64,000 nucleotides of DNA from Siphonodentalium dalli (Eukaryota; Mollusca; Scaphopoda; Gadilida; Siphonodentaliidae), in assembly GCA_032622095.1 (NCBI GenBank), contig CP136062.1:141688351-141752350 (forward strand), in the 5' to 3' direction. The notes beneath the pieces were generated by a model, which did not search any database, had not been told where the DNA came from, and worked only from the letters and a program-made list of their open reading frames with translations. A program made the translations under genes and the position numbers. Below, in pieces: positions 9,478 through 58,548 of the stretch. Each line of letters starts with the position of its first letter. Position 1 is the first letter of the stretch.

Positions 9478-9957
9478 TCAATCATCGTTGTGCTTTCCTT
9501 TGATGATGTTAACGAACTCATTGTAATTGAAGTGTCCTCCGGAGATAGGTGCTTCCTTCCAGGTCCGCGCGATCTCATCTTTAGTGAAGTTATCTCCCAT
9601 GTTTTGAAGCAGATCTTTGAGGTATGCTTCCGGAATTGTTCCTTTCCCTTCCTCGTCGAACATTTTGAAAGCATCAATAAGTGTACTCTCAGAATCCGTC
9701 CCGCCGATTTTCTCCCCAAACAAGGTCAGAAACATCGTGAAGTTAAGCGGACCTGGAGCCTCTTTCAGCATTTCTTTAAGATCCTTATCGTTCGGCGTCT
9801 TTCCGAATTGCGAATAAATTTCTTTCAAATCAACCAACTCGATCAAGCCATCTCTATTAGAATCGATCACAGAGAAAGCCTCTTTAAGTTCCTGCATAAC
9901 TTTCTGTGGGAGTTTGGTGAAGGCTCCTGAAGCGCATTGTTTCGTCTTGTCAGCCAT
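9478..9957 (-). CDS. Myosin regulatory light chain, copy 1
   Basis: The 159-residue EF-hand protein has the size and layout of molluscan myosin regulatory light chain, which wraps the myosin neck and confers calcium or phosphorylation control on the motor. Start is MADKTKQ, the first Met conserved in all three copies. A longer in-frame start 27 bases upstream is not conserved. EF-hand 1 (residues 32-43, DSNRDGLIELVD) keeps Asp at positions 1, 5 and 12 and Gly at 6. The KEAPGPLNFTMFL block follows, typical of this family. The later EF-hands (around FDEEGKGT and the C-terminal ISGGHFNYNEF) have degenerate loops. The frame has no intron. It differs by one residue from the copy at 58069 and by four from that at 41603. 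A TATA-like TATAAG lies about 90 bases upstream. Function is from family knowledge and the muscle or non-muscle type is not decided. Confidence 0.93.
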   Translation of the reverse strand: MADKTKQCASGAFTKLPQKVMQELKEAFSVIDSNRDGLIELVDLKEIYSQFGKTPNDKDLKEMLKEAPGPLNFTMFLTLFGEKIGGTDSESTLIDAFKMFDEEGKGTIPEAYLKDLLQNMGDNFTKDEIARTWKEAPISGGHFNYNEFVNIIKGKHNDD

Positions 9958-13773: not shown

Positions 13774-14870
13774 GCAAGACTTGTGGTGATCACTGGTCGG
13801 AGAAGGCCGGCCCCTTAGATCGAATATTTTGTTTTTACAAATTTCCCAATGTATACATTTTATGACCACTGTTTTTACTATAACTCTAAATCCGTGTCTT
13901 TGTTTCAGTTCAAGATACAAACCATAATGAACTATCAGGTTTAAATGAGGTAGCAATCAACGATTTCTGGCCATTTTCACAATTTTGAGTGGTTACTGTA
14001 CTACAACCTTCTGCTGCACCATGGTCATTGACAAACAGCACACGAATGTTTGGCTACAAGAGACAGAAAATGCACTAAGCATTCAACTGTCTGTACTTTG
14101 ACTGGACTGTCACATCACAAATTGAATTATCTCCCTTAGACTGTCCATGCAATACACCAATTTTTAACCATTGTTTGGCCGAAAGTGGTCGTCTTCGGCC
14201 CCATAGTTAACCATGACAGAGCGAATGTCAGTCTATGGTCACCTTGTGAGCAGATAGAACCTAGATAGATGTAAGATGTTTTAAAAACTAAAGACAAATT
14301 ATCGTATCAATTTTGAAATTTTGTTTTGGAACTGGAGAAGACTGTTTTCAAGGGAAATAAATCAAGCTCTTTTCCGGTGTATTATTACCACATTGAGCTG
14401 GTCCACACCAGATACGAAACACATACTTCGTAATTCAAACATCATCCCATTTTGTGAACTATGGTATCTTTATAAAATAATTAAACCATTTAAACAGTAC
14501 TCACATTAATAACAAATGTCGAACTGACAGTTACAGCCCTTATATTCTTAAAATCCTATTTTTCAGCCCTCCTACAAACCCATGAAATCGTGTATGGATA
14601 CTTGAACTATAACGCATAGTATTGTCGATGACAGTGTTGCCGTGCACGAACGTGCTTATTAATCTAAATTGTTTATTTCAGATGGTTGGAACTAATATTT
14701 TGTCTGAATTTCGGTATGTTTGTTCTGTCAGTCACATGCCCCTTGTTTCGAATTTACAAAACACCACATTTCCACCACGTTCTTTTGGCGATATTTGACC
14801 CAGAAGCAAACAATGGCAAAGCGAATGACAGCAAATAATCATACCATCGCATGTTAGAACTATGCTGGCA
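13774..14870. other. No recognisable gene
   Basis: Single-copy sequence between the end of array unit 1 and the MITE. No conserved frame, RNA gene or repeat was recognised. Confidence 0.5.
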
Positions 14871-15268
14871 TTAACCCTTTACCCAACAAACCGGCCAAAA
14901 CCGGCCAAATAAAGCTTCAACAGCCTAAAATATCTTCGGTCTGTCTCAATAGAACCATACAAATATGGGTATCATTGGAACCGGCTCCTTGACCACATTG
15001 TGATAGTTACAGTTATGCCCTGTGCCAATGCATTCTCTTATATATGCGAGTCGACCATAGGTCGCCTCGCATATATAAGAGAATGCATTGGCCTAAACAA
15101 AATCTTTTTTAACACTTTTTCCATTTTTTCTTACATTCTTTAACAATTTTATAATTTTTAATGTGTTAAGCCAATGCATTCTCTTATATATGCGAGGCGA
15201 CCTATGGTCGACTCGCATATATAAGAGAATGCATTGACACAGGGCCATTCTGTTGGGTAAAGGGTTAA
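14871..15268. mobile_element. piggyBac-like MITE with TTAA target duplication
   Basis: A 390-bp element (14875-15264) begins CCCTTTACCCAACA and ends with its reverse complement TGTTGGGTAAAGGG, flanked on both sides by TTAA. CCC termini and TTAA duplication are the signature of the piggyBac superfamily. Inside are two 70-base palindromes (about 15020-15090 and 15168-15240) built from GCATTCTCTTATATATGCGA arms, and each palindrome is the reverse complement of the other. It has no coding capacity. A half copy lies at 31927. Confidence 0.85.
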
Positions 15269-15830
15269 CCTATATTGGAATTAGAAATAAACCCATCACA
15301 GTGGCTGGCTCTCAATGCCTTTTCCTTCAGAAATAATGCAGCGGTCAAGCAGCCGTCAGAAGTGTTATAAATGCGGATTCTAGTTTCCCTACACACATTC
15401 AAGAAGCGCAGCTCTAATGATTGATTTACATGTAACCATGCATACGGCAATATAAATTGTAACATTATATACGTCGAACGTGTGCGCGTGCCATAAATCT
15501 AACTCAGAACCGAAAGCATTCAGTTTTATTTGTCAGTAATATATTGATACGCTTAACATCTTATGCATCTATACAATTCGCTTGTTTAGTTGACATTATA
15601 CTCAATTTTACACCGCGCACAGTGAAACGAGTAATACTTCAAATTCACGGAGCAAGTGGGAAGCGCCGATGCATGTTGTGACACGAATTTGAATGCAACG
15701 CAAAGTAAACACTTCATTGCCACTCGAAAGCTGTGTTGTTGTACTCGAAAGATCGCCGAACCAATCAAATAGCGTTGATTAGGCGGAACAGAGGCCACTA
15801 CGTTCTTGTAAAAACACCCCCTTCCAGACC
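15269..15830. other. No recognisable gene; presumed nanos upstream region
   Basis: Single-copy sequence between the MITE and the nanos promoter. No element was recognised by eye. Confidence 0.4.
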
Positions 15831-24165: not shown

Positions 24166-26533
24166 GGCAAAGGTGTAGCTTTGTTTAATGATTTGGAGTA
24201 TGTTTGGATGAATGTACATGAATGACGATCGTTGGGGGGGGGGGGCATGTGACCAATCACCCCCGTGTCGCAGTGACATTGTCCCTGAGATTGCCTGAAT
24301 GACTTTGGTTTTACATTAGTTTAGCATGTATTGTTTGTGCTGAACCGATTCCTAATATTCCAACGCCGATCGATCGAGAAAACGCTATATTTTACAAAGT
24401 TGCTTCACAATTCTTGGATAAACTGCTCGACAACTTATGAAACAGACGATGAACAAAACATGTAACAATGATTGGAATAAACAATCAATCAAGCTGCGCC
24501 GGTGCATCATTAAAGATCATATACCCGTGCATTATCTTATATATGCGTACATGTAGCCTCGCATATATATAAGAGAATGCACTGGCTAACAAGGTCAAGG
24601 TAAATATTTTAAGGCTCTTATATATGCGAGGCTCCATATGGGAGAAAATAAATATGAAGCCCCCCCCCCCCCCTGTCCGCAAACGCTTATATAAATTAAT
24701 ATTGATTATATTTCTAATTTTCTGGTATAATCAATGGTACAATAAATTTGGGACATTCCAGTGCCCGCGTTCGTTCTGAGCGTATCATGGGCGATAGCTC
24801 TATCTAAAACATCTTAAAATGGTAACGAAAAAATGTCCCACTTGGCCATCGCATTATGTAAGAAAATATCGATATAAAATCAATACTAATTGATAGAAGC
24901 GTGTCCGGAAAGGTGTCTTCGACTCATATTTATTATTTTATACTCCGGAAACCAGATAAAATGTATTTAGGAAGGGATAGACTATCTTTAACTCCAGTGT
25001 GGACTAATCAATCTAAAGTTCTAAACCGAAGTTGGCTTGTCAGTTTCTCAGCCAAAACTACATATCAAGTTCGAATATGGGTTCTGTCCAGTGATTTCGG
25101 CATGAGTTACGACTTCGAAATTACATGTACATATACAAATGTACATGTGCCTGCATGATTTAATAACATTTTGGTTTGCAACAGATTTACGCAGTTCGGA
25201 ATATTTTATCAGAAGTTTGTATAGAAATACAGGTCGACAAGTTCAACTATGGGTGCAGATCAACGCGTTTTGCACGAGTGGTGCAGACACTTTTCAGACT
25301 TGGAATTTATCCAATTTGAAAACATATTTGTTTCTGACTGATAACTCCAGATTTGGTTATTTTCTCGCAACTAAAATTGGTACATGTGTGCTTTCAAAAT
25401 TGCAGGCAACTTCAACGTTTCGAATATGGGTAGGGTCCTCCGTTGATTTTGCACGACTTCTAGCCCTTCTCAACATAATTAATCCGAGTTGATGTAATTA
25501 TTTATGAGTTTAACAAACTGGCGTATTTAGCCACGCCCAAGCGATGCTCTTGAATTCGGAACATTTAGTTCCGATAGTTACTACATGTTTTCATTTTATT
25601 ATTTATTTTGTAATTAAAATATGTTGATATATTTTGCATTGCTTACTCTCTAAATTGAAGTCGTGACAATGATAGCCTCGGACCCGTTTGGCTCCGACAT
25701 GTGACAATAAAGAGCGTTTGTTTAATTATTTCTTTAAACGGTGAAAATAAAGAGCGTTCGTCTACATTATGCGATAAACGTTGAATACAGTTGATAAATA
25801 TTTCCGACTTTGTCTGACTTTGTTAAGTCTTTCTCGTGCATACGAATTATGTATAAATAAGTATTTCAGATATTGATCGGCCTATTTTGTTAACAGGAAC
25901 GCTACAAAAGCAAGACATTCCTAGATTTAGTTATTATCCCACTTGCAGGTTGGGGATATACTTGATTTGTTTGAACATATTTCTTGTGACCCAAATATTA
26001 CAACACCCTAAAGGACATCGACCGTTTAAATTTCGAAATGGCACGAGCACACGGAATGCAATCCATAGAACTAACTATTCACAAAATCATTCCTTTACTT
26101 GGAAAACACAATATACCAACATTAGTCCAGATCGAAGTAGTATAAAACAGAACTTTTATGTGAGGCCAAAACGAAGAATATCTGTGTTTAGGGTAACCCG
26201 CCCGCCCCTACTCAAAACCTGCCGCCAAATTCCATTTTATCGTTTTTCAAAAATTTCCTCCGACTTCATTTTGTTTTTTGGTAATTAGGATTTCGCGACT
26301 GCGGAATTAGCTTAAACAAGTAAACCATTTCCTTGCAAATATCGTCAATTCACGAAAAACGGAAGCGCCGCCATTGTTGTAGTATATTCGTGTTCCCTCG
26401 TCATTGTTCGGCAAATCTCGCCGATTTCTCGAAAGCGGAAACCGGAAAAAACGCAATACTTGGCCCGGAATTTGTATTAACTAGCAAATCGAACGTAACC
26501 GGATATGTTGCCGATTGCACATGGCGAATAAAT

Positions 26534-29500
26534 ATGGCAGAAACTCTTCCGTGTGCGGAGAAATTCTGCATTATTGCTATCAAACTGCACAAATGTTCTC
26601 ATATGAAACAGCCTAAAAACATCATGGCGCCTGTAAATTATAATACAGACATGTTGTCGTGCATGAACCGGTATCACACCGGTTCTGTACTGACTGAAAA
26701 AGATATAGTTATTAAGTGTCAAATTAAAAATAATATTGACACTTTTGTTAGTTTTGAAATCGATCCAAAGCTTAAAATTGGAGATGTTGTCAAGCAATTT
26801 GCCATAAATACGCTAGAGTTTCAATGCATTAAAGAGAATGAAGAAGCAGAAGAAGAAAGCTGTGCGCCCAAAATCAATGCATTTCAAACACTGATGGGCG
26901 CTTCTAGTGTGAAGTGTTTCGCACTGGCCAAAAAAGAAAACAGGTATGTGTTGTCATATTTATAGTCACTGCTAGCCTGAGTTTCTGCAACTGTTAACGT
27001 TGATTCTGATTTGGTTAACAGTCTGGTTACAAAGCGCTCATATTTTGGGATACCACTCACCTGATCGGGTGAGAGGCCTATATTAACTTCTATCTCCCAC
27101 AACCAATAATAAAACCAAAACATACGGAATTATGAATCTTTCACGCATCTGTACGTATAAAAATAGTCTGCCAAAAATATCTCTCACTTGCCTCTTCAGG
27201 GTTAGAAACAAGACTAACCATCGGTTGTTAATACATTCTGCCGATCAGTTCTGTATATGAATTTATAATCAAGTGACCTGTTTAAATATTATTTAGATCC
27301 ACGGGTCAGAGGTCAGACAACAGAGGTTCATATATGCATGACCTTTTGGGTTCTATTGTTGATTGTGGGGGTAAAAGTTATAGGTCCCAAAAAATGAGCA
27401 CATTCAGCCTTTGCACTCAGGCTGTTTTAAAACCAAATCAGAATCAACGTTAACAGCCTGCGGAAACTCAGGCTATTAAGCCACTGCATGATCGGAATCA
27501 CAAATGTTAATTAAACTGGATACAGTAAAGGTATCCTGCGAGTGTAGTATTTTGATGTCACACCAGTCTGTTTAATAAATACATGATGTTTAATATGCTG
27601 TAAATGTACAGTACTCGTTCTTGTAAAAACATTTTTCTACTTTCACCAAAAATGAGCATGGCAGAATGCTAAAACGGAACAGAGCAGATATCGTTCCGTT
27701 CAAATTATTTTGCTGTTCAATAACTCACGACGTGAGTTTCAATCTGTGCCAAGTGCCTGTATTGTGTACAGATAGACCAGAATGGAACTCAGGTCACGAA
27801 ATGGCAATACAAAGATTGGAGATCAATTCAGGCATCAACAGTCATTAATATTATTATCCAACCACGCTAAAAAGTTCATTTATGCTTCTGGTGTGTATGT
27901 CATGTGTGCATCATACAGATATAAATATTGTCGATATACATTTTTTCAGCGACGACTTGAATTCCAAAGAATTACTGTATAATAAAATAATAAAGATGTT
28001 CAACGACCAAGAATGTAGCTTTGTTGGGCTGTCAGCGGCAGAAACAACTGGATGCTATATTGTTCAGGTATATAAATGTATATAAAATTAAAATTTCAAT
28101 TAAATCTGACATCACCTCAATTTGATGTATTTTGTTGGGTCCTGGTCACTTCGTCACCGGACACTTCACCACCAGGCCGTTTTGGTCGCAATGTGTCTTT
28201 GGTATCGGTGGCGAACGGTCTCAGGTCCTGGTGTCAACGTGTCTCGAGTTAGGGTATGGAATATTACAACAAGACAAATAAAAATATAGGCCAACATGTA
28301 ATATAATTACCCCATATAATAATTTAACATATTCCCCTGTAATCCACCAGAATATGTTTAATACTATAATTATTATATAGATTAATTAGATTATAAAATT
28401 CACGCATAGGATGTAAAATAGGGTTGTACTAGTATAAACGTGTGTACGCAATCAGACACCTGTTTCAAATATCATTTGTATGTCTATATACACCTAAATT
28501 AACATACGTTTAGGCTGAGTCGCTCATTTATTTAAAGTCATGTGGACAATTATGAACACAACGTTTATAAGCATCCGGTTCAATCTAGACATTTGTATTA
28601 TTGTCTAAGTATGGAGCTTCTACCATTTTAAAGATTCACATAGATGAATAAATTCACAGAATATGGTGAATGGTGTTATTTTGTTGATATTATAGTCAAA
28701 TAGTCTTGTGTTTCGTTTAGTTTATAAAGCGATATCCTATTTATAATATTTTAAATACAGATTATCACCAATGCACTATGGTGTGTAACAAATGACCATG
28801 CCATGACCAAAGATGCAGTCGCAAGAAATAAAGATGTAACACAGATTCCCCCAGTATTTGCAGATTACCAGAATCTGTATGATTTCAAAGCTATCAAGAA
28901 AAAACGCAAACAACTGTCAGCAGTTGAGACGAACAGCCATGCTCAGGTAAATATGCATATACTGGTACTATGAAAAAGAAACGATACTCTATACATGTAA
29001 ATTACTACAGCGGGAGAAGTTGAGTGTGTCTGTTCATACATGGTGTTATTGAGGTGGGGATATCAGATCGAGAGTCATGACCATCGTGATCTTTGTCCCA
29101 TGGATTGTAACATGGATGTGGGAGTTTGGATTCTCATAGTAGGACAATATTTATAAATAACCGAATATGTATATGTACATTCCTCAATAGCGATGAATGT
29201 TGCTTGCTTGGAATGTACACATTTTGTTTGCTATTAAAAGTAAGTTGTACCATGTTTTATTTTTATAGGCCCTGTATAGTGTGTTGATGAAGCCTGTGAT
29301 GAAAATATATGTAGCTTGGCTAAAGATGAATGACAATATCAAGATGTTAGCAGACAGTCTACATTCGTATTCCAAGTTTCTCGACACAACATGTGACAAC
29401 ATGAAAAGAATTCATTGTATGGACCATCCAGCTAGACAGGTGTCCAAAGATTGCTCTGATGAGTTCAGACAGTGTGTTCGTCCAAAGAATGTTGATCCTA

Positions 29501-32500
29501 AGTATGGCATTTTGGATCGTCTTGTCGAAGAAGAAAGCATCGTCTTCTTTGATGAGCATGTTCATGTAAAACAACGATTCAAAGATAAGATGCAACGACA
29601 TAGGTATAATTCAATTTACTCATATTAATATTAGTTTAAGTTCTTTTGTTTATTCATTAACATGTTGTTTAGAATGAGAATTTCGTTATTTATAGTTCCA
29701 GTTTATTCCTTATAAAATTTGAATGAATTTTATTTTTTAGTTTGTTACTAATATTTGTGTTTCATATTGTTGTTTATTTCAGTTTTGTTTAATTGACCAT
29801 TTACTTTCATACAGGTTGTGTCAAGAATTCATGCTTTATTTTGTGTTCACTGTTTTTTTAAATTTTATTTGTATTCAGATATATTCTCAAACCTCATGTA
29901 CTGCTATGACCAGATGTTTGGAAGCACATACAATCAGGTTGCTAAGCAGGTAAATAATAAGTTTTATTGGCGGAATGGTCGCTTTATTCAACATTCGTTC
30001 TATTTACGACTGATAGTAATAGTAGTCACATCATTCTATGCAATACAAAACAAATTTTGGTTCTTACTGTACCAAATGCATTCGTTCTAAAAATACTCAA
30101 GCATTGCATATGAAAAATGCATGTAATTGCATGTTTTTAGTTTGAAACCGAGTATTTCAATAATTTGATTTTTTGTGGTATTTACATATCGCGACAGGAG
30201 TTCCATTCTGGTCTGTCTGTGCACATAAAGCACAGGGACTTTAGCACAGATTGGAACTCACGTCTCAATATTTTAAGACAAATTAGAAACAAACTAACTT
30301 GTTTTTCTGAAGAATAGATGGTACATTGCATGTACATACTTGTAAATGGTATATTCAATTTACAGGTTCTTGGAGAATCATTATTTAAGTCACCCCATCG
30401 ACGTATATAGATTTTCGGCTGGGGGCAGTTCAATAACAACTGCCTGTGTTGTTAAAGTTAGAGATGGCAGAACTGACAACGAGAAGATGACCGAAGCAGT
30501 ACAGTTCATGGCAACTGATGACGTAAAAAAAAACTTTAGAGAGTACCACACACGTCTTCAGCGAAAAGTCTTCAAAGAGAAGCTACAGAACTTAGCTTCA
30601 GGTAAATGTGTTTTGCATGTACATTCATAAATTAACAGAACTATATAAAAACATATTGATATGTATGTGCTACATAGATTAATAATAAATATTATTTCCC
30701 CACCTTGCCCGGGTGGGGGGGGGGGGGGTCGGAAAATATTTGTAGGCACGTATGCTGATTTTTGACTTTCGACCCTTGTTGGGACCCACCCACCCCTGCG
30801 TCCAAATTATTTTCCGTTTTCGGCAGTTTTTTCCGACCATTTTTTGACACCCACCCCCTTTTTAACAATAAAACAGAGATTTGCAAGGGGAATTTCACTG
30901 TAAACAGTTGTATATGAATTTCTGTGCATACTATTTATCACGGATGTGAACATTGACATGTAAATAGGAACAAGTCATTTTGGGGTTATTCAGTCCAAAA
31001 AAACATGGCTGCCAGCAGCCATCTTGGATTTCAATATTCAATCCATTATCATGCGCTACAGGCTATACTGTTTGTCTGATCATGATGAAATTTGTCATTT
31101 ATGTTAATATTGACATATAGATGTGTTTTAATCCAAACTCATTGCAAAAACAGTCAAACAGACTTGCAGGAAAAATATTTTTGAGTTGCGAAAAAAATTG
31201 TTTGTATGTCCTATCGACCACCCACCCACCTCGGCATATGTGCCAGGAAAGTTTTTTTTCAACCCCCTGACCTTGCTAGAAAGTACTTCTACCAATGTCA
31301 GAACTTATGATGAGAACAAATTTGGTTTATTCTAAAATGATTTACACACAAATTGGAATTAGCACATACTTGTATATGAATAGTAGTTCCAAAATGAAAT
31401 GACTATGACATGCCAAATCAGTCCGTACACTGTTTTAATTTATGGGATTTTTATTTCCAGTACAACCAGCTGTGACTGATTTGATATATCGGGAACTTGC
31501 TGTGGATGCTTCAGTTGCAGCACACCCGATAACTGCACAACGAATGAGATTGATTTTCCTTGGACATGAAGACCTGATTGCTGATTTGAGGAACCTGAAC
31601 CCTGGACGACCAGGAAATAATTTTGATCTTTTTTTTTGTACAACTTGAAAAGGTACATAATTGTACATTACACAACTATTTAATATGTTTTATATGAAAC
31701 TATTGCTTCAGTAGTGTATCACTTCATACATACAATGTTACAAATCTGGCAGTGGATATCCAACATGTAGATATTGTAAATACCACATTGCAAATTATTT
31801 AATCATTTAGTACCAAATGTTGTGATTTTACTTACATAATTTTATATTTTGTGGATTATTTTCCAGCATTTAGAACGTTTTTCTGGTGTATATAATTTTA
31901 TTGGTTGTGATGGATATTCAAATTAACCCTTTACCCAACAAAACATCCAAAAACGCCCAAATAAAGCTTCAACAGCCTAAAATATCTTCGGTCTCTCTCA
32001 ATAACACCATACAAATATGGATATCATTGGAACCGGTTCATTGACCACATTGTGATGGTCATAGTTATGCCCTGTGCCAATGCATTCTCTTATATATGCG
32101 AGTCGACCATAGGTCGCCTCGCATATATAAAAGAATGCATTGGCCTAAAAAAAAAGATATTAATAATCACTTGAATGCATCAATACATCGTTGCTAATTG
32201 ATATGACGGCAAATACGCAATAATATTCGCAATAGTTTATTATAACTGAAGTAAAATAGTGGACCGGACCGGCGGTAAAAAGCGGTCCAGTCCAATTCAG
32301 TGACACTCGGTCCAAAGCGGACTGGTCCGCATCACTAATAGTCTTAGTTAAACAATATATTTAATAGATGGATTGATGGGTATATGAATGATTTTTAGAT
32401 TGTGGAAGAAGTAACTGCTGCTGATGACCGCCGTCACAATGTTGCTCATCTTGCTGCCTGGATTTCAATCCGAGACTTAATTGAGCAGTGTATTGCCGCC

Positions 32501-33194
32501 TGTCCAGAAGGAACACCAATACCATCTGAAAGTCTTGTAAGACTCCAGTTTTCACCGAAAAATGCATATTCCAAAACGGCATTGAAATTTACTTCTAGGA
32601 TTAAGGTACTAACATAGTTCTTGATTTTGTTAACAGAGTATCACTTTCATTAATATTTAAATTATAGATAGATCTGGTACTGATATTGAGACAAAGTGTT
32701 CAAGTATCTGGACAGTGGACATGGTATGTTTTTGGATGTACTCTTTTCCCATTGTTGTTCTCTCGTCTGCATTTTCTCTATATAGTTTTATTGTGTAAAC
32801 AATATTTATTCCCGAAATGTATACATGAATGACAAGACATATAAACATAACATACATACACAATATCAGACAGGTAAACGGGAGAGGAGTGGACAACAAG
32901 CTGGGTGGCTTTTATAAGTCTTCTCTAAAATAGAGAATCTCACAGAGCAATAAGGCAGACAAATTTATATATGCCTACAAATTGTGCAGTGGTGCCGAAA
33001 ATATATATAGTCTTATAATTATTCCCAGGTACAGTACAAGATCCAACGCAGGCAGTTGAGGGCTACTCACCCTGATCAACATTACGCAGCTGCTCAATTC
33101 AGATATATGAGAGAAATGGTAGTCGAACTTGGACCAACAAAAGCAATGCTGATCTTTGCTGATGATAAAGCAAAGGTTCCTATTGGAGAACCAG
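26534..33194 (+). CDS. Nine-exon unclassified DDK-GEPG gene (transposase-like), 3' truncated
   Basis: Exons inferred from GT/AG sites, phase and frame: 26534-26943, 27950-28067, 28761-28946, 29269-29603, 29815-29949, 30366-30601, 31461-31652, 32399-32605, 33029-33194. The start MAETLPCAEKFC is the first in-frame ATG of exon 1. Phases match at most junctions. Successive recognisable pieces are MNRYHTGSVLTEKD, YGILDRLVEEESIVFFDEHV, QMFGSTYNQVAKQ-VLGESLF, RFSAGGSSITTACVV, SLVRLQFSPKNAYSK, HPDQHYAAAQFRYMRE and finally AMLIFADDKAKVPIGEPG. From memory, similar uncharacterised proteins exist in cnidarians and molluscs. The hydrophobic-strand-then-DDK layout resembles the first strand of an RNase H-like transposase core (inference). 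Frame breaks sit in a T run (29865), a TA run (30405) and a nine-T run (31630). The next exon is missing, and a dispersed repeat starts at 33307. Confidence 0.6.
26975..27473. mobile_element. MITE with TA duplication in intron 1
   Basis: The 499-bp element has inverted ends of about 45 bases: GCCTGAGTTTCTGCAACTG at the left and its complement at the right, both continuing through GTTAACGTTGATTCTGATTT. It is flanked by TA on both sides, as in Tc1/mariner-type elements. There is no coding sequence. Confidence 0.75.
28200..28750. other. Intron 2 interior
   Basis: AT-rich intron sequence between exons 2 and 3 of the DDK-GEPG gene. No further feature was recognised. Confidence 0.5.
30711..31268. 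mobile_element. G-run element, copy A (intron 6)
   Basis: About 560 bases are homologous to 38520-39074 throughout (GCACGTATGCTGATTTTT, ACATGGCTGCCAGCAGC, GACCACCCACCCACC). The left end is a run of about 14 G followed by TCGGAAAATATTT. The right end is degraded here. A non-autonomous element of unknown superfamily. Confidence 0.6.
31923..32150. mobile_element. Truncated piggyBac-like MITE
   Basis: TTAA then CCCTTTACCCAACAAA, matching the left half of 14875-15264 up to and including the first palindrome (GTCGACCATAGGTCGCCTCG), then a run of nine A. The right half is missing. It lies in intron 7 of the DDK-GEPG gene. Confidence 0.75.
32255..32340. repeat. GGACCGG-rich inverted segment
   Basis: Contains GTGGACCGGACCGG, AGCGGTCCAGTCC and AAGCGGACTGGTCCGCATCACT, which pair partly with one another. 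It may be the fused ends of a DNA transposon with GTGATGCGGACC-type termini. No duplication was found. Confidence 0.3.
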
Positions 33195-33639
33195 GTATAA
33201 TTTTAATTCTTTATAATAACAATATATTACGCTGAGAAATGCATGATTCAGATCTGATATTTACTTGTGTACATTCACACACTATAGTTTTCTGTGTCAT
33301 GTCCTACAAGAAAACTAAGATGCATGCATCAGGTCGGCCGTGAACTATCTACCATAGAATTGTTGTAGCTATCGATTATACATTTTGGAACACCTGTCTG
33401 TATATATGTGTGTATGCATGAATGCATGTGTGTATGTGTTATAGACTCTAACACTGCTCTACTGATCCGACTCGGATTTGGTATTTAACGTGTCAACTTG
33501 ACCTCGCTCATAGGCATGTTTCTGGACCTTGACCGATCCGACTAAACATTTGTGTGTAGGACTACTTCGATCCCGGGAGCAATATTGACTGGTCCAATTT
33601 CACGTGGGACCATGTTCTCGAACGTGTAGATGTAGGCAT

Positions 33640-38509: not shown

Positions 38510-39084
38510 TATGTTACACAGGGGGGAGTCAGAAAATATTTGCAGGCACGTATGCTGATTTTTTACTTTCGACCTTTGTTGTGACCCACCCCGCGTCCAA
38601 ATTATTTTCCGTTTTCGGCAGTTTTTTCCGGCCATTTTTGGACACCCACCCCCCTTTTAACACTAAAACAGAGATTTGCGGTGGGAAATTCACTGTAAAA
38701 TGCTGTATATGAATTTCTGTGCATACTATTAATCATGGATGTTAACATTGACATGTAAATAGGAACAAGTCATTTTGGGGTCATTGTAAAAAAAAAACAA
38801 CATGGCTGCCAGCAGCAATCTTGGATTTCAAAATTCAATCCATTAGCAAGGGCTACAGGCTATATTGTTTGTCTGATCATCATGAAATTTGTCATTTATG
38901 TTAATATTGACACATATATGTGTTTTAAGCCAAACTCATTGCAAAAACAGTCTAAAAGACTTGCAGGACAAATATTTTTGAGTTGCGGAAAAAATTGTTT
39001 GTTGGTCCTATCGACCACCCACCCACCCCGACATACGTGCCCGGAAAAAACTTTTTTTCCACCCCCCCCCCCCCTATGTTACAC
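38510..39084. mobile_element. G-run element, copy B, with 10-bp duplication
   Basis: The element (about 38520-39074) lies between two copies of TATGTTACAC (38510-38519 and 39075-39084). It starts AGGGGGGAGTCAGAAAA and ends TTTTTTTCCA plus a run of C, so the ends are inverted G/C runs followed by A/T runs. It parallels the hAT-like element at 19025. The exact duplication length (8 to 10) depends on which end base is assigned. Confidence 0.7.
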
Positions 39085-41602: not shown

Positions 41603-42082
41603 TCAATCATCGTTGTGCTTTCCTTTGATGATGTTAACGAACTCATTGTAATTGAAGTGTCCTCCGGAGATAGGTGCTTCCTTCCACGTCCGCGCGATTT
41701 CATCTTTAGTGAAGTTATCTCCCATGTTTTGAAGCAGATCTTTGAGGTATACTTCCGGGATTGTTCCATTCCCTTCCTCGTCGAACATTTTGAAAGCATC
41801 AATGAGTGTGCTCTCGGAATTTGTCTCGCCGATTTTCTCGCCAAACAAGGTAAGAAACATCGTGAAGTTAAGCGGACCTGGAGCCTCTTTCAGCATCTCT
41901 TTAAGATCCTTGTCGTTCGGCGTCTTCCCGAATTGCGAATATATTTCCTTCAAATCAACCAACTCGATCAATCCATCTCTATTAGAATCGATCACAGAGA
42001 AAGCCTCTTTAAGTTCCTGCATAACTTTCTGTGGGAGTTTGGTGAAGGCTCCTGAAGCGCATTGTTTCGTCTTGTCAGCCAT
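41603..42082 (-). CDS. Myosin regulatory light chain, copy 2 (array unit 3)
   Basis: An intact intronless 159-codon frame with the same start (MADKTKQC), the same canonical first EF-hand (residues 32-43) and the same KEAPGPLNFTMFL block as the copy at 9478. It differs at four residues: GG to GE and D to N in GEKIGETNSE, K to N in FDEEGNGT, and A to V in PEVYL. It is the most diverged of the three. No stop or frameshift is present. It has a full TATATAAG box and a perfect TGACGTCA upstream. Confidence 0.93.
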   Translation of the reverse strand: MADKTKQCASGAFTKLPQKVMQELKEAFSVIDSNRDGLIELVDLKEIYSQFGKTPNDKDLKEMLKEAPGPLNFTMFLTLFGEKIGETNSESTLIDAFKMFDEEGNGTIPEVYLKDLLQNMGDNFTKDEIARTWKEAPISGGHFNYNEFVNIIKGKHNDD

Positions 42083-58068: not shown

Positions 58069-58548
58069 TCAATCATCGTTGTGCTTTCCTTTGATGATGT
58101 TAACGAACTCAGTGTAATTGAAGTGTCCTCCGGAGATAGGTGCTTCCTTCCAGGTCCGCGCGATCTCATCTTTAGTGAAGTTATCTCCCATGTTTTGAAG
58201 CAGATCTTTGAGGTATGCTTCCGGAATTGTTCCTTTCCCTTCCTCGTCGAACATTTTGAAAGCATCAATGAGTGTGCTCTCGGAATCCGTCCCGCCGATT
58301 TTCTCCCCAAACAAGGTAAGAAACATCGTGAAGTTAAGTGGACCTGGAGCCTCTTTCAGCATCTCTTTAAGATCCTTATCGTTCGGCGTCTTTCCGAATT
58401 GCGAATATATTTCCTTCAAATCAACCAACTCGATCAATCCATCTCTATTAGAATCGATCACAGAGAAAGCCTCTTTAAGTTCCTGCATAACTTTCTGTGG
58501 GAGTTTGGTGAAGGCTCCTGAAGCGCATTGTTTCGTCTTGTCAGCCAT
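58069..58548 (-). CDS. Myosin regulatory light chain, copy 3 (array unit 4)
   Basis: An intact intronless 159-codon frame. It is identical to the copy at 9478 apart from N to T in the C-terminal HFNYTEF. The first EF-hand loop DSNRDGLIELVD (residues 32-43) and the KEAPGPLNFTMFL block are unchanged. The upstream region keeps the TATATAAG box at 58635-58642 and TGACGTCA at 58708-58715, so with copy 2 it has the best preserved promoter. Low divergence implies recent duplication or gene conversion. Confidence 0.93.
   Translation of the reverse strand: MADKTKQCASGAFTKLPQKVMQELKEAFSVIDSNRDGLIELVDLKEIYSQFGKTPNDKDLKEMLKEAPGPLNFTMFLTLFGEKIGGTDSESTLIDAFKMFDEEGKGTIPEAYLKDLLQNMGDNFTKDEIARTWKEAPISGGHFNYTEFVNIIKGKHNDD

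What the first reader, a model, noticed from the sequence alone, without database searches (positions are those of the whole stretch)
26534..33194. Multi-exon gene of an unclassified family ending in an ADDKAKVPIGEPG motif
Nine exons can be chained by splice sites and phase. The last carries a hydrophobic strand followed by DDK and GEPG. I recall this signature from large uncharacterised protein families in cnidarians and molluscs but know no described function. The layout is compatible with the start of an RNase H-like transposase core, so this could be an undescribed cut-and-paste transposase or a domesticated derivative. It is spliced, which favours an old or domesticated gene.
Basis: partly seen in the sequence, partly recalled or inferred. 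Interest (0 to 1): 0.75.

Follow-up and report, generated by a model that had tools for sequence, protein, structure and literature searches.

The report
Broken copy of an unclassified transposase
The stretch is the front part of a spliced gene that looks like a DNA cut-and-paste enzyme; an intact copy sits on another chromosome, and its family is a widespread kind of jumping gene that we could not match to any named group.

Summary
Window 26534-33194 carries eight, not nine, exons of one gene. This copy is broken: a frame break in exon 6, and the 3' half is missing. An intact 13-exon copy (1114 aa) lies on C4 with the triad D609-D712-E756; a second broken copy lies on C5. Homologues (144 and 177 proteins in two searches) continue with DGGxD and NPxER; the D-E distance is 44 in all 79 of 120 listed that show all three motifs. 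AlphaFold models have RNase H order with the triad in place; Foldseek's best PDB match is Mos1 mariner (E 4e-7). The same genome holds near-identical mobile relatives, 4.2-8.0 kb, with inverted repeats starting GGCC and 3-bp target duplications (15 of 16 independent copies); one empty site lies inside this window. So this is a DDE cut-and-paste transposon family plus a spliced relative without detected inverted repeats. No Pfam transposase family was seen; profiles match neither Harbinger nor mariner, although the ends resemble Harbinger's. Relatives are named from cnidarians to fishes and in mycorrhizal fungi. Repbase/Dfam could not be searched, so 'unnamed superfamily' is likely, not proven.

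The parts
26534..26943 (+). exon 1 (start codon; N-terminal region)
   Evidence: matches exon 1 of the C4 gene at 96.6%
27950..28067 (+). exon 2
28761..28946 (+). exon 3; 12 of 164 homologues have a ..FQ|V(L/I)CNALW junction at its start, read as ORFs that run out of the preceding intron, so that intron seems shared
   Evidence: intron reading is inference
29269..29603 (+). exon 4
29914..29949 (+). NOT an exon: open 36-nt piece that a pure splice-phase chain would include
   Evidence: P0051 and P0069 have no residues here; absent from the C4 gene model
30366..30601 (+). exon 5
31461..31652 (+). exon 6, with a one-base frame break in the T run 31629-31637
   Evidence: the C4 copy is open here
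32399..32605 (+). exon 7
33029..33194 (+). exon 8: first strand of the RNase H core with the DDK motif; last coding piece present
33195..33303 (+). start of the next intron, cut off at about 33304 by an abundant repeat
26163..33304 (+). segment shared with the intact gene on C4 at 96-98% (with gaps around 31877-32154); the C5 stretch that was fetched matches it from 28240 on
   Evidence: for the duplications on either side
15066..15270 (-). paralogous empty site of mobile element D1 (C1:257346588-257354589): its flanks joined with a single TTG match here at 92.7% over 205 columns

Best explanation
The window holds the truncated, frame-broken duplicate of a spliced gene for a DDE/RNase H-fold transposase. 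The family is a group of cut-and-paste DNA transposons with terminal inverted repeats that start GGCC (33-53 bp by an ungapped 75% criterion) and 3-bp target duplications (TWA in most copies, TGA and TTG in one each). The protein is about 1.1 kaa: a helical/HTH N-terminal part, an RNase H core with D-(~105)-D-44-E, and a Cys-rich, probably zinc-binding C-terminus. Most likely working: the transposase binds the inverted repeats, cuts at the GGCC ends with metal ions held by the triad and joins them to a target cut 3 bp apart (binding, chemistry and cut positions are inferred; insertion with a 3-bp duplication is shown by one empty site). A lineage of this transposase became a 13-exon gene on C4 without detected inverted repeats, keeping all catalytic residues; it was duplicated, and two duplicates, the window's among them, decayed. 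A host function of the C4 gene is inferred.
For: Homologues: 44 proteins of 52 candidates, 144 of 1996, 177 of 1202. Motifs: 79 of the 120 listed have all three; D2-E distance 44 in 79 of 79; in 74 aligned rows D214 is invariant and D107, D108 and E258 are at 90% or more. Fold: b1-b2-b3-a-b4-a-b5-a with the triad at the end of b1, after b4 and in the last helix (mean pLDDT 80.5 and 84.6). Foldseek: Mos1 E 4.6e-4 and 4.0e-7, probability 1.00, next non-Mos1 row 8e-3. Mobility: groups of copies 98.1-99.8% identical, inverted repeats 25-29 of 30 in 17 of 17 copies measured, equal 3-bp flanks in 16 of 17, 15 of 16 independent, an empty site, 189 exact TWA-plus-repeat termini against 0 for the reversed control. 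Gene: intact 13 exons, close copies only on C5 and, cut short, in the window, no GGCC repeat pair above background around it, 159 of 164 near-invariant residues kept.
Confidence: 0.86

Rival explanations
1. It is a very divergent branch of PIF/Harbinger (PHIS): same kind of ends (GGCC) and same kind of target duplication (TWA).
For: TWA flanks in most copies equal the PIF/Harbinger TSD given in PMC4482050 (passages); PMC12477816 gives TNA for classic Harbinger (passages), which also covers the TGA copy. That GGCC starts are common among Harbinger/Tourist elements is recalled.
Against: No PF13359 hit: complete lists for 6 element proteins, and not among the families shown for 53 and 44 homologues (25 of 38 and 25 of 27 families shown), while the same genome yields 150 PF13359 places. 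hhalign of the family core against 12 local Harbinger domains: probability 0.3, halves of Harbinger against each other 100; but Harbinger against mariner also gives only 0.1, so this silence is weak. No second large ORF is evident in the five elements listed (small ORFs not scanned). TTG flanks in D1.
Confidence: 0.12
2. It belongs to another superfamily that I could not compare by sequence: Academ, Zator or a Sola group.
For: Academ, Sola and Zator are reported from bivalves (PMC10294476, passages) and Sola-2 from Rhizophagus irregularis (PMC11075540, passages); Zator makes 3-bp TSDs (PMC10045372, passages); Academ TSDs of 3-4 bp are recalled.
Against: No XPG, helicase or ISAzo13-type domain in the complete lists for 6 element proteins nor among families shown for 53 and 44 homologues; a helicase marks AcademH (PMC10799480, passages), XPG in AcademX and the ISAzo13 link to a Pfam model are recalled; the Sola TSD of 4 bp (recalled) does not fit the 3-bp empty site.
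Confidence: 0.2
3. The window copy is a working gene: the frame break is an assembly error in a T run and the 3' exons lie beyond a long intron.
For: The break lies in a homopolymer; the splice borders are GT/AG throughout.
Against: No downstream exon recognised in the remaining 30 kb; the next exon's DNA occurs at high identity only on C4 and C5; the copy carries substitutions at conserved sites, one in a column conserved at 97%.
Confidence: 0.05
4. The intact C4 gene is not domesticated but a transposon copy, spliced like D1, whose inverted repeats have merely decayed.
For: A mobile element (D1) with inverted repeats and TSD also has its homology in several blocks; the gene keeps its catalytic residues.
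Against: 13 exons over 14 kb; no GGCC repeat pair above background within about 3 kb on either side.
Confidence: 0.35

Closest known systems
Mos1 mariner (IS630-Tc1-mariner)
   Same: RNase H core order, acidic triad, Foldseek's best solved-structure match; the full-length model aligns from residue 163, also over Mos1's HTH part, but at rmsd about 14
   Different: about 14% identity; 3-bp instead of 2-bp TA TSD; protein about three times longer; hhalign against three local DDE_3 sequences probability 0.2-0.4
PIF/Harbinger (PHIS)
   Same: TWA target duplication in most copies, GGCC ends
   Different: no PF13359 similarity seen, no second large ORF evident, single ~1.1-kaa ORF in three of five elements listed
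Zator / ISAzo13
   Same: 3-bp TSD (literature passage)
   Different: no ISAzo13-type Pfam hit seen
Academ
   Same: amplified in bivalves, known in animals and fungi (literature passages)
   Different: no XPG or helicase domain seen; transposase core could not be compared here

Membership tests
DDE cut-and-paste transposons (as a kind) | RNase H fold with D, D, E at b1, b4 and the last helix | tested here: met
   (predicted models, not solved structures)
DDE cut-and-paste transposons (as a kind) | terminal inverted repeats | tested here: met
   25-29 of 30 bp in 17 of 17 copies measured; control: 10 of 1126 GGCC pairs reach 20 of 30, a count that includes the true pairs of A13, A15 and D1. Loci in which no pair was recognised are told in the Against line
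DDE cut-and-paste transposons (as a kind) | fixed-length target site duplication and empty site | tested here: met
   16 of 17 copies, 15 of 16 independent; one empty site of 16 copies tested, window 15066-15270
DDE cut-and-paste transposons (as a kind) | transposition by the encoded protein | not testable with these tools
   needs an assay
PIF/Harbinger | TSD TWA (TNA) | tested here: met
   exceptions: TTG in D1, unequal flanks in L023
PIF/Harbinger | DDE_Tnp_4-type catalytic domain | tested here: not met
   Searches (complete lists, 6 proteins; families shown): no hit; hhalign probability 0.3
PIF/Harbinger | second ORF with Myb/SANT domain | tested here: inconclusive
   five elements, ORFs of 90 aa or more listed: no second large ORF evident; small ORFs were not scanned for domains
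Tc1/mariner | catalytic-domain similarity | tested here: inconclusive
   structure yes (tied with integrases and Argonaute), Pfam and hhalign no; the mariner profile had only 3 sequences
Tc1/mariner | 2-bp TA target duplication | tested here: not met
   3 bp
Zator/ISAzo13 | ISAzo13-type DDE domain in Pfam (model recalled) | tested here: not met
   (complete lists, 6 proteins); not among families shown
Academ | XPG nuclease (recalled) or helicase domain | tested here: not met
   (complete lists, 6 proteins); not among families shown
Academ | Academ-type transposase core | not tested
   no Academ sequences were at hand; the AcademH paper is not held
Sola | 4-bp target duplication (recalled) | tested here: not met
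   3 bp

The most novel reading that the evidence does not exclude
An undescribed superfamily of eukaryotic DDE transposons, recently active, present from cnidarians to fishes and in arbuscular mycorrhizal fungi (suggesting horizontal transfer), whose transposase was captured at least once as a spliced host gene that keeps a complete catalytic triad and so may still cut DNA for the host.
Probability: 0.35. Interest if true: 0.8.

Novelty: new variant of a known kind. Interest (0 to 1): 0.66.

Why it matters
Hundreds of these proteins sit in public databases unnamed or as 'uncharacterized'. Identifying them as transposases would explain a large multi-copy family in marine invertebrates, add a candidate DDE superfamily whose target choice equals that of Harbinger though the enzyme does not, and offer a candidate domesticated recombinase with intact catalytic residues.

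Tried and rejected
Rejected: nine-exon chain. Rejected: a C-terminal CW zinc finger; 12 of 44 proteins hit PF07496 (best 9.1e-5), but of nine proteins scanned singly five matched, all below the curated cut-off. Rejected as meaningless: CRISPR ring nuclease, ribosomal and other hits in PDB sequence searches and single weak Pfam hits such as RVT_3, 1 of 53 at 0.057, and Terpene_synth, 2 of 53, best 0.0016. No relatives in viral contigs or in the bacterial and archaeal contigs. The clade-B inverted repeat pattern with up to 3 mismatches is not in the window. Motif strings were not found in papers (one search's one hit is about cetaceans). Paper searches for a matching superfamily showed none in their listings, several of them capped; Repbase, Dfam and most subscription papers were out of reach. 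No Harbinger, Academ or Sola structure appeared among the fold matches shown, which says nothing.

hhalign does not link Harbinger with mariner either (probability 0.1), so its silence about our family only says it is no closer to them than they are to each other.

Full report
What is there. The window lies at G000:C2:141688351-141752350 of a 2.23-Gb, 9-contig genome, probably a mollusc (its myosin light chains match scallop and similar muscle myosin entries best; inference). Exons with GT/AG borders chain from 26534 to 33194. tblastn of full-length homologues shows eight exons; the 36-nt piece at 29914-29949 is bridged by both homologues shown that cover it. The exon 31461-31652 has a one-base frame break. 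Pfam finds nothing for the two pieces.

Homologues. A search with the last two exons gave 44 proteins among 52 candidates; a second with residues 380-629 of the chained translation gave 144 of 1996, 120 of them listed, up to 1101 aa. They continue past GEPG for about 500 residues with DGG[TVP]D[QH]R and NPxERxMS. Of the 120 listed, 79 show all three motifs by strict patterns; of the other 41, 15 lack the third, 10 show only the first, 3 lack the first, 3 lack the second and 10 show none (fragments and variants). D2-E distance is 44 in 79 of 79, D1-D2 99-109. In 12 of 164 proteins an ..FQ|V(L/I)CNALW-type junction stands exactly where exon 3 begins; I read these as ORFs running out of an intron shared with the window gene. 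In several such homologues the rest is one open frame, where the window gene has further introns.

The mobile relatives. A search of the own genome with P0051 gave 1729 first-look candidates, 48 scored, 68 matches, many of them long open frames up to 1156 aa. Seven groups of copies among the 30 loci are 98.1-99.8% identical, mostly on different contigs; L041/L042 share one. Fourteen of the 30 loci have GGCC-type repeats at both ends, L036 at one, 15 at neither, their stretches reaching only 1.5 kb beyond the match. Of five loci extended, L013 (A13), L015 (A15) and L017 (D1) then showed both ends, L014 and L018 (D2) none. L026/L037 shows a GGCC-type end on one side only. Over the 17 copies with both ends, the repeats agree in 25-29 of 30 bases and the 3-bp flanks are equal in 16; L024 and L028 share flanks, so 15 of 16 independent ones; L023 is the exception. 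In the 13 independent copies all flanks are TWA, so equality by chance would be one half each; 12 of 13 has a chance of about 0.002 (own arithmetic). A13 has TAA, A15 TGA, D1 TTG on both sides. The joined flanks of D1 with one TTG match window 15270-15066 at 92.7% over 205 columns: a paralogous empty site. Of the 16 copies tested against the window and loci in hand it is the only convincing one. The pattern TWA-GGCCAYAYAAANTTAATNNTNNGTTTCTCA occurs 189 times in the genome, the reversed control 0 times. The five elements whose ORFs were listed are 4.2-5.0 kb; three have one ORF of 1094-1122 aa, two have it split.

The spliced gene. C4:223330877-223344865 (-) carries 13 exons in one frame, 1114 aa, triad D609, D712, E756. 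The C5 copy has a stop and a frame break, and its exon 9 is split by about 9.5 kb with a 9-bp overlap of the two pieces. The window copy ends at about 33304, where 36 of 40 scored genome matches cover only the sequence from there on. Exon 9 DNA gave 14 matches: C4 itself, two C5 pieces at 98-99%, and eleven at 65-88%, the longest identity on 51 bases. Around the C4 gene, 84 GGCC pairs in the 20 kb held were tested; the best reaches 17 of 30, against 29 of 30 for the true pair and 19 of 30 for the next of 551 in the A13 control. C4 keeps 159 of 164 near-invariant residues, 97.0% (other members: median 98.7%, minimum 95.3%). At sites where copies differ, C4 has the commoner family residue in 16 of 21 for the window copy (4 against, 1 tie) and 16 of 24 for C5 (6 against, 2 ties). 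In a FastTree of 220 cores (of 315 sequences; those not matching the core pattern were dropped) the gene falls in a clade of 87, all DGG[TV]D, support 1.0, with own-genome loci L014 and L015; L015 has both transposon ends. Splicing is not proof of domestication: D1 has its homology in several blocks.

Distribution. Named hits include bivalves and gastropods, Priapulus, a starfish, a crinoid, an acorn worm, amphioxus, a hagfish, two teleosts, three cnidarians, and the fungi Rhizophagus irregularis, R. clarus and Ambispora leptoticha at 51-59% identity to element L021 over the core. Horizontal transfer is a natural reading but was not tested; for eight fungal members the nearest neighbours are mostly other fungal ones and the unnamed P0170.

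Classification. No transposase family in the complete Pfam lists of 6 element proteins nor among the families shown for 53 and 44 homologues. hhalign of the core: DGG[TV]D against DGGPD clade 100; against Harbinger domains of the same genome 0.3; against three DDE_3 domains 0.2-0.4; Harbinger halves 100; Harbinger against DDE_3 0.1. PMC9587614 (passages) lists 20 DDD/E superfamilies of Repbase; of these, by target length, Harbinger, Zator and (recalled) Academ come nearest, and each lacks a defining feature as far as tested. I saw passages only of PMC4482050, PMC9587614, PMC10294476, PMC10045372, PMC10799480, PMC11075540, PMC12477816 and PMC13155389; other papers only as search listings. Statements marked recalled come from no call.

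Mechanism. Shown: triad conservation, inverted repeats, 3-bp duplication, one clean insertion; predicted: the fold. Inferred: binding by the helical N-terminal part and the Cys-rich tail, metal-dependent cutting at GGCC, and any host role of the C4 gene.

Noticed in passing
window 9478-9930, 41603-42055, 58069-58521 (-): Three copies of a myosin regulatory light chain gene lie within segmental duplications that cover much of the window.
   Followed up: partly
window 33304 onward: An abundant repeat begins here: 36 of 40 scored genome matches cover only this part and begin at query bases 696-707 (window 33295-33306).
   Followed up: no
window 30721-31267 and 38521-39066; 31922-32154 and 14870-15102: Repeats sit inside introns of the broken gene; the second has no match in the C4 copy but lies within the C5 match.
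   Followed up: no
G000:C5:170496979-170506484: Exon 9 of the C5 copy is split by about 9.5 kb, with a 9-bp overlap of the two flanking pieces, like an insertion with a 9-bp duplication.
   Followed up: no
P0064: A protein filed under a Sedimenticola MAG belongs to this family: probably host DNA in the bin (inference).
   Followed up: no
window 15066-15270, 32069-32162 and several loci: A short partly palindromic repeat (ATGCATTCTCTTATATATGCG) recurs in many fetched stretches; element D1 is inserted in one copy of it.
   Followed up: partly
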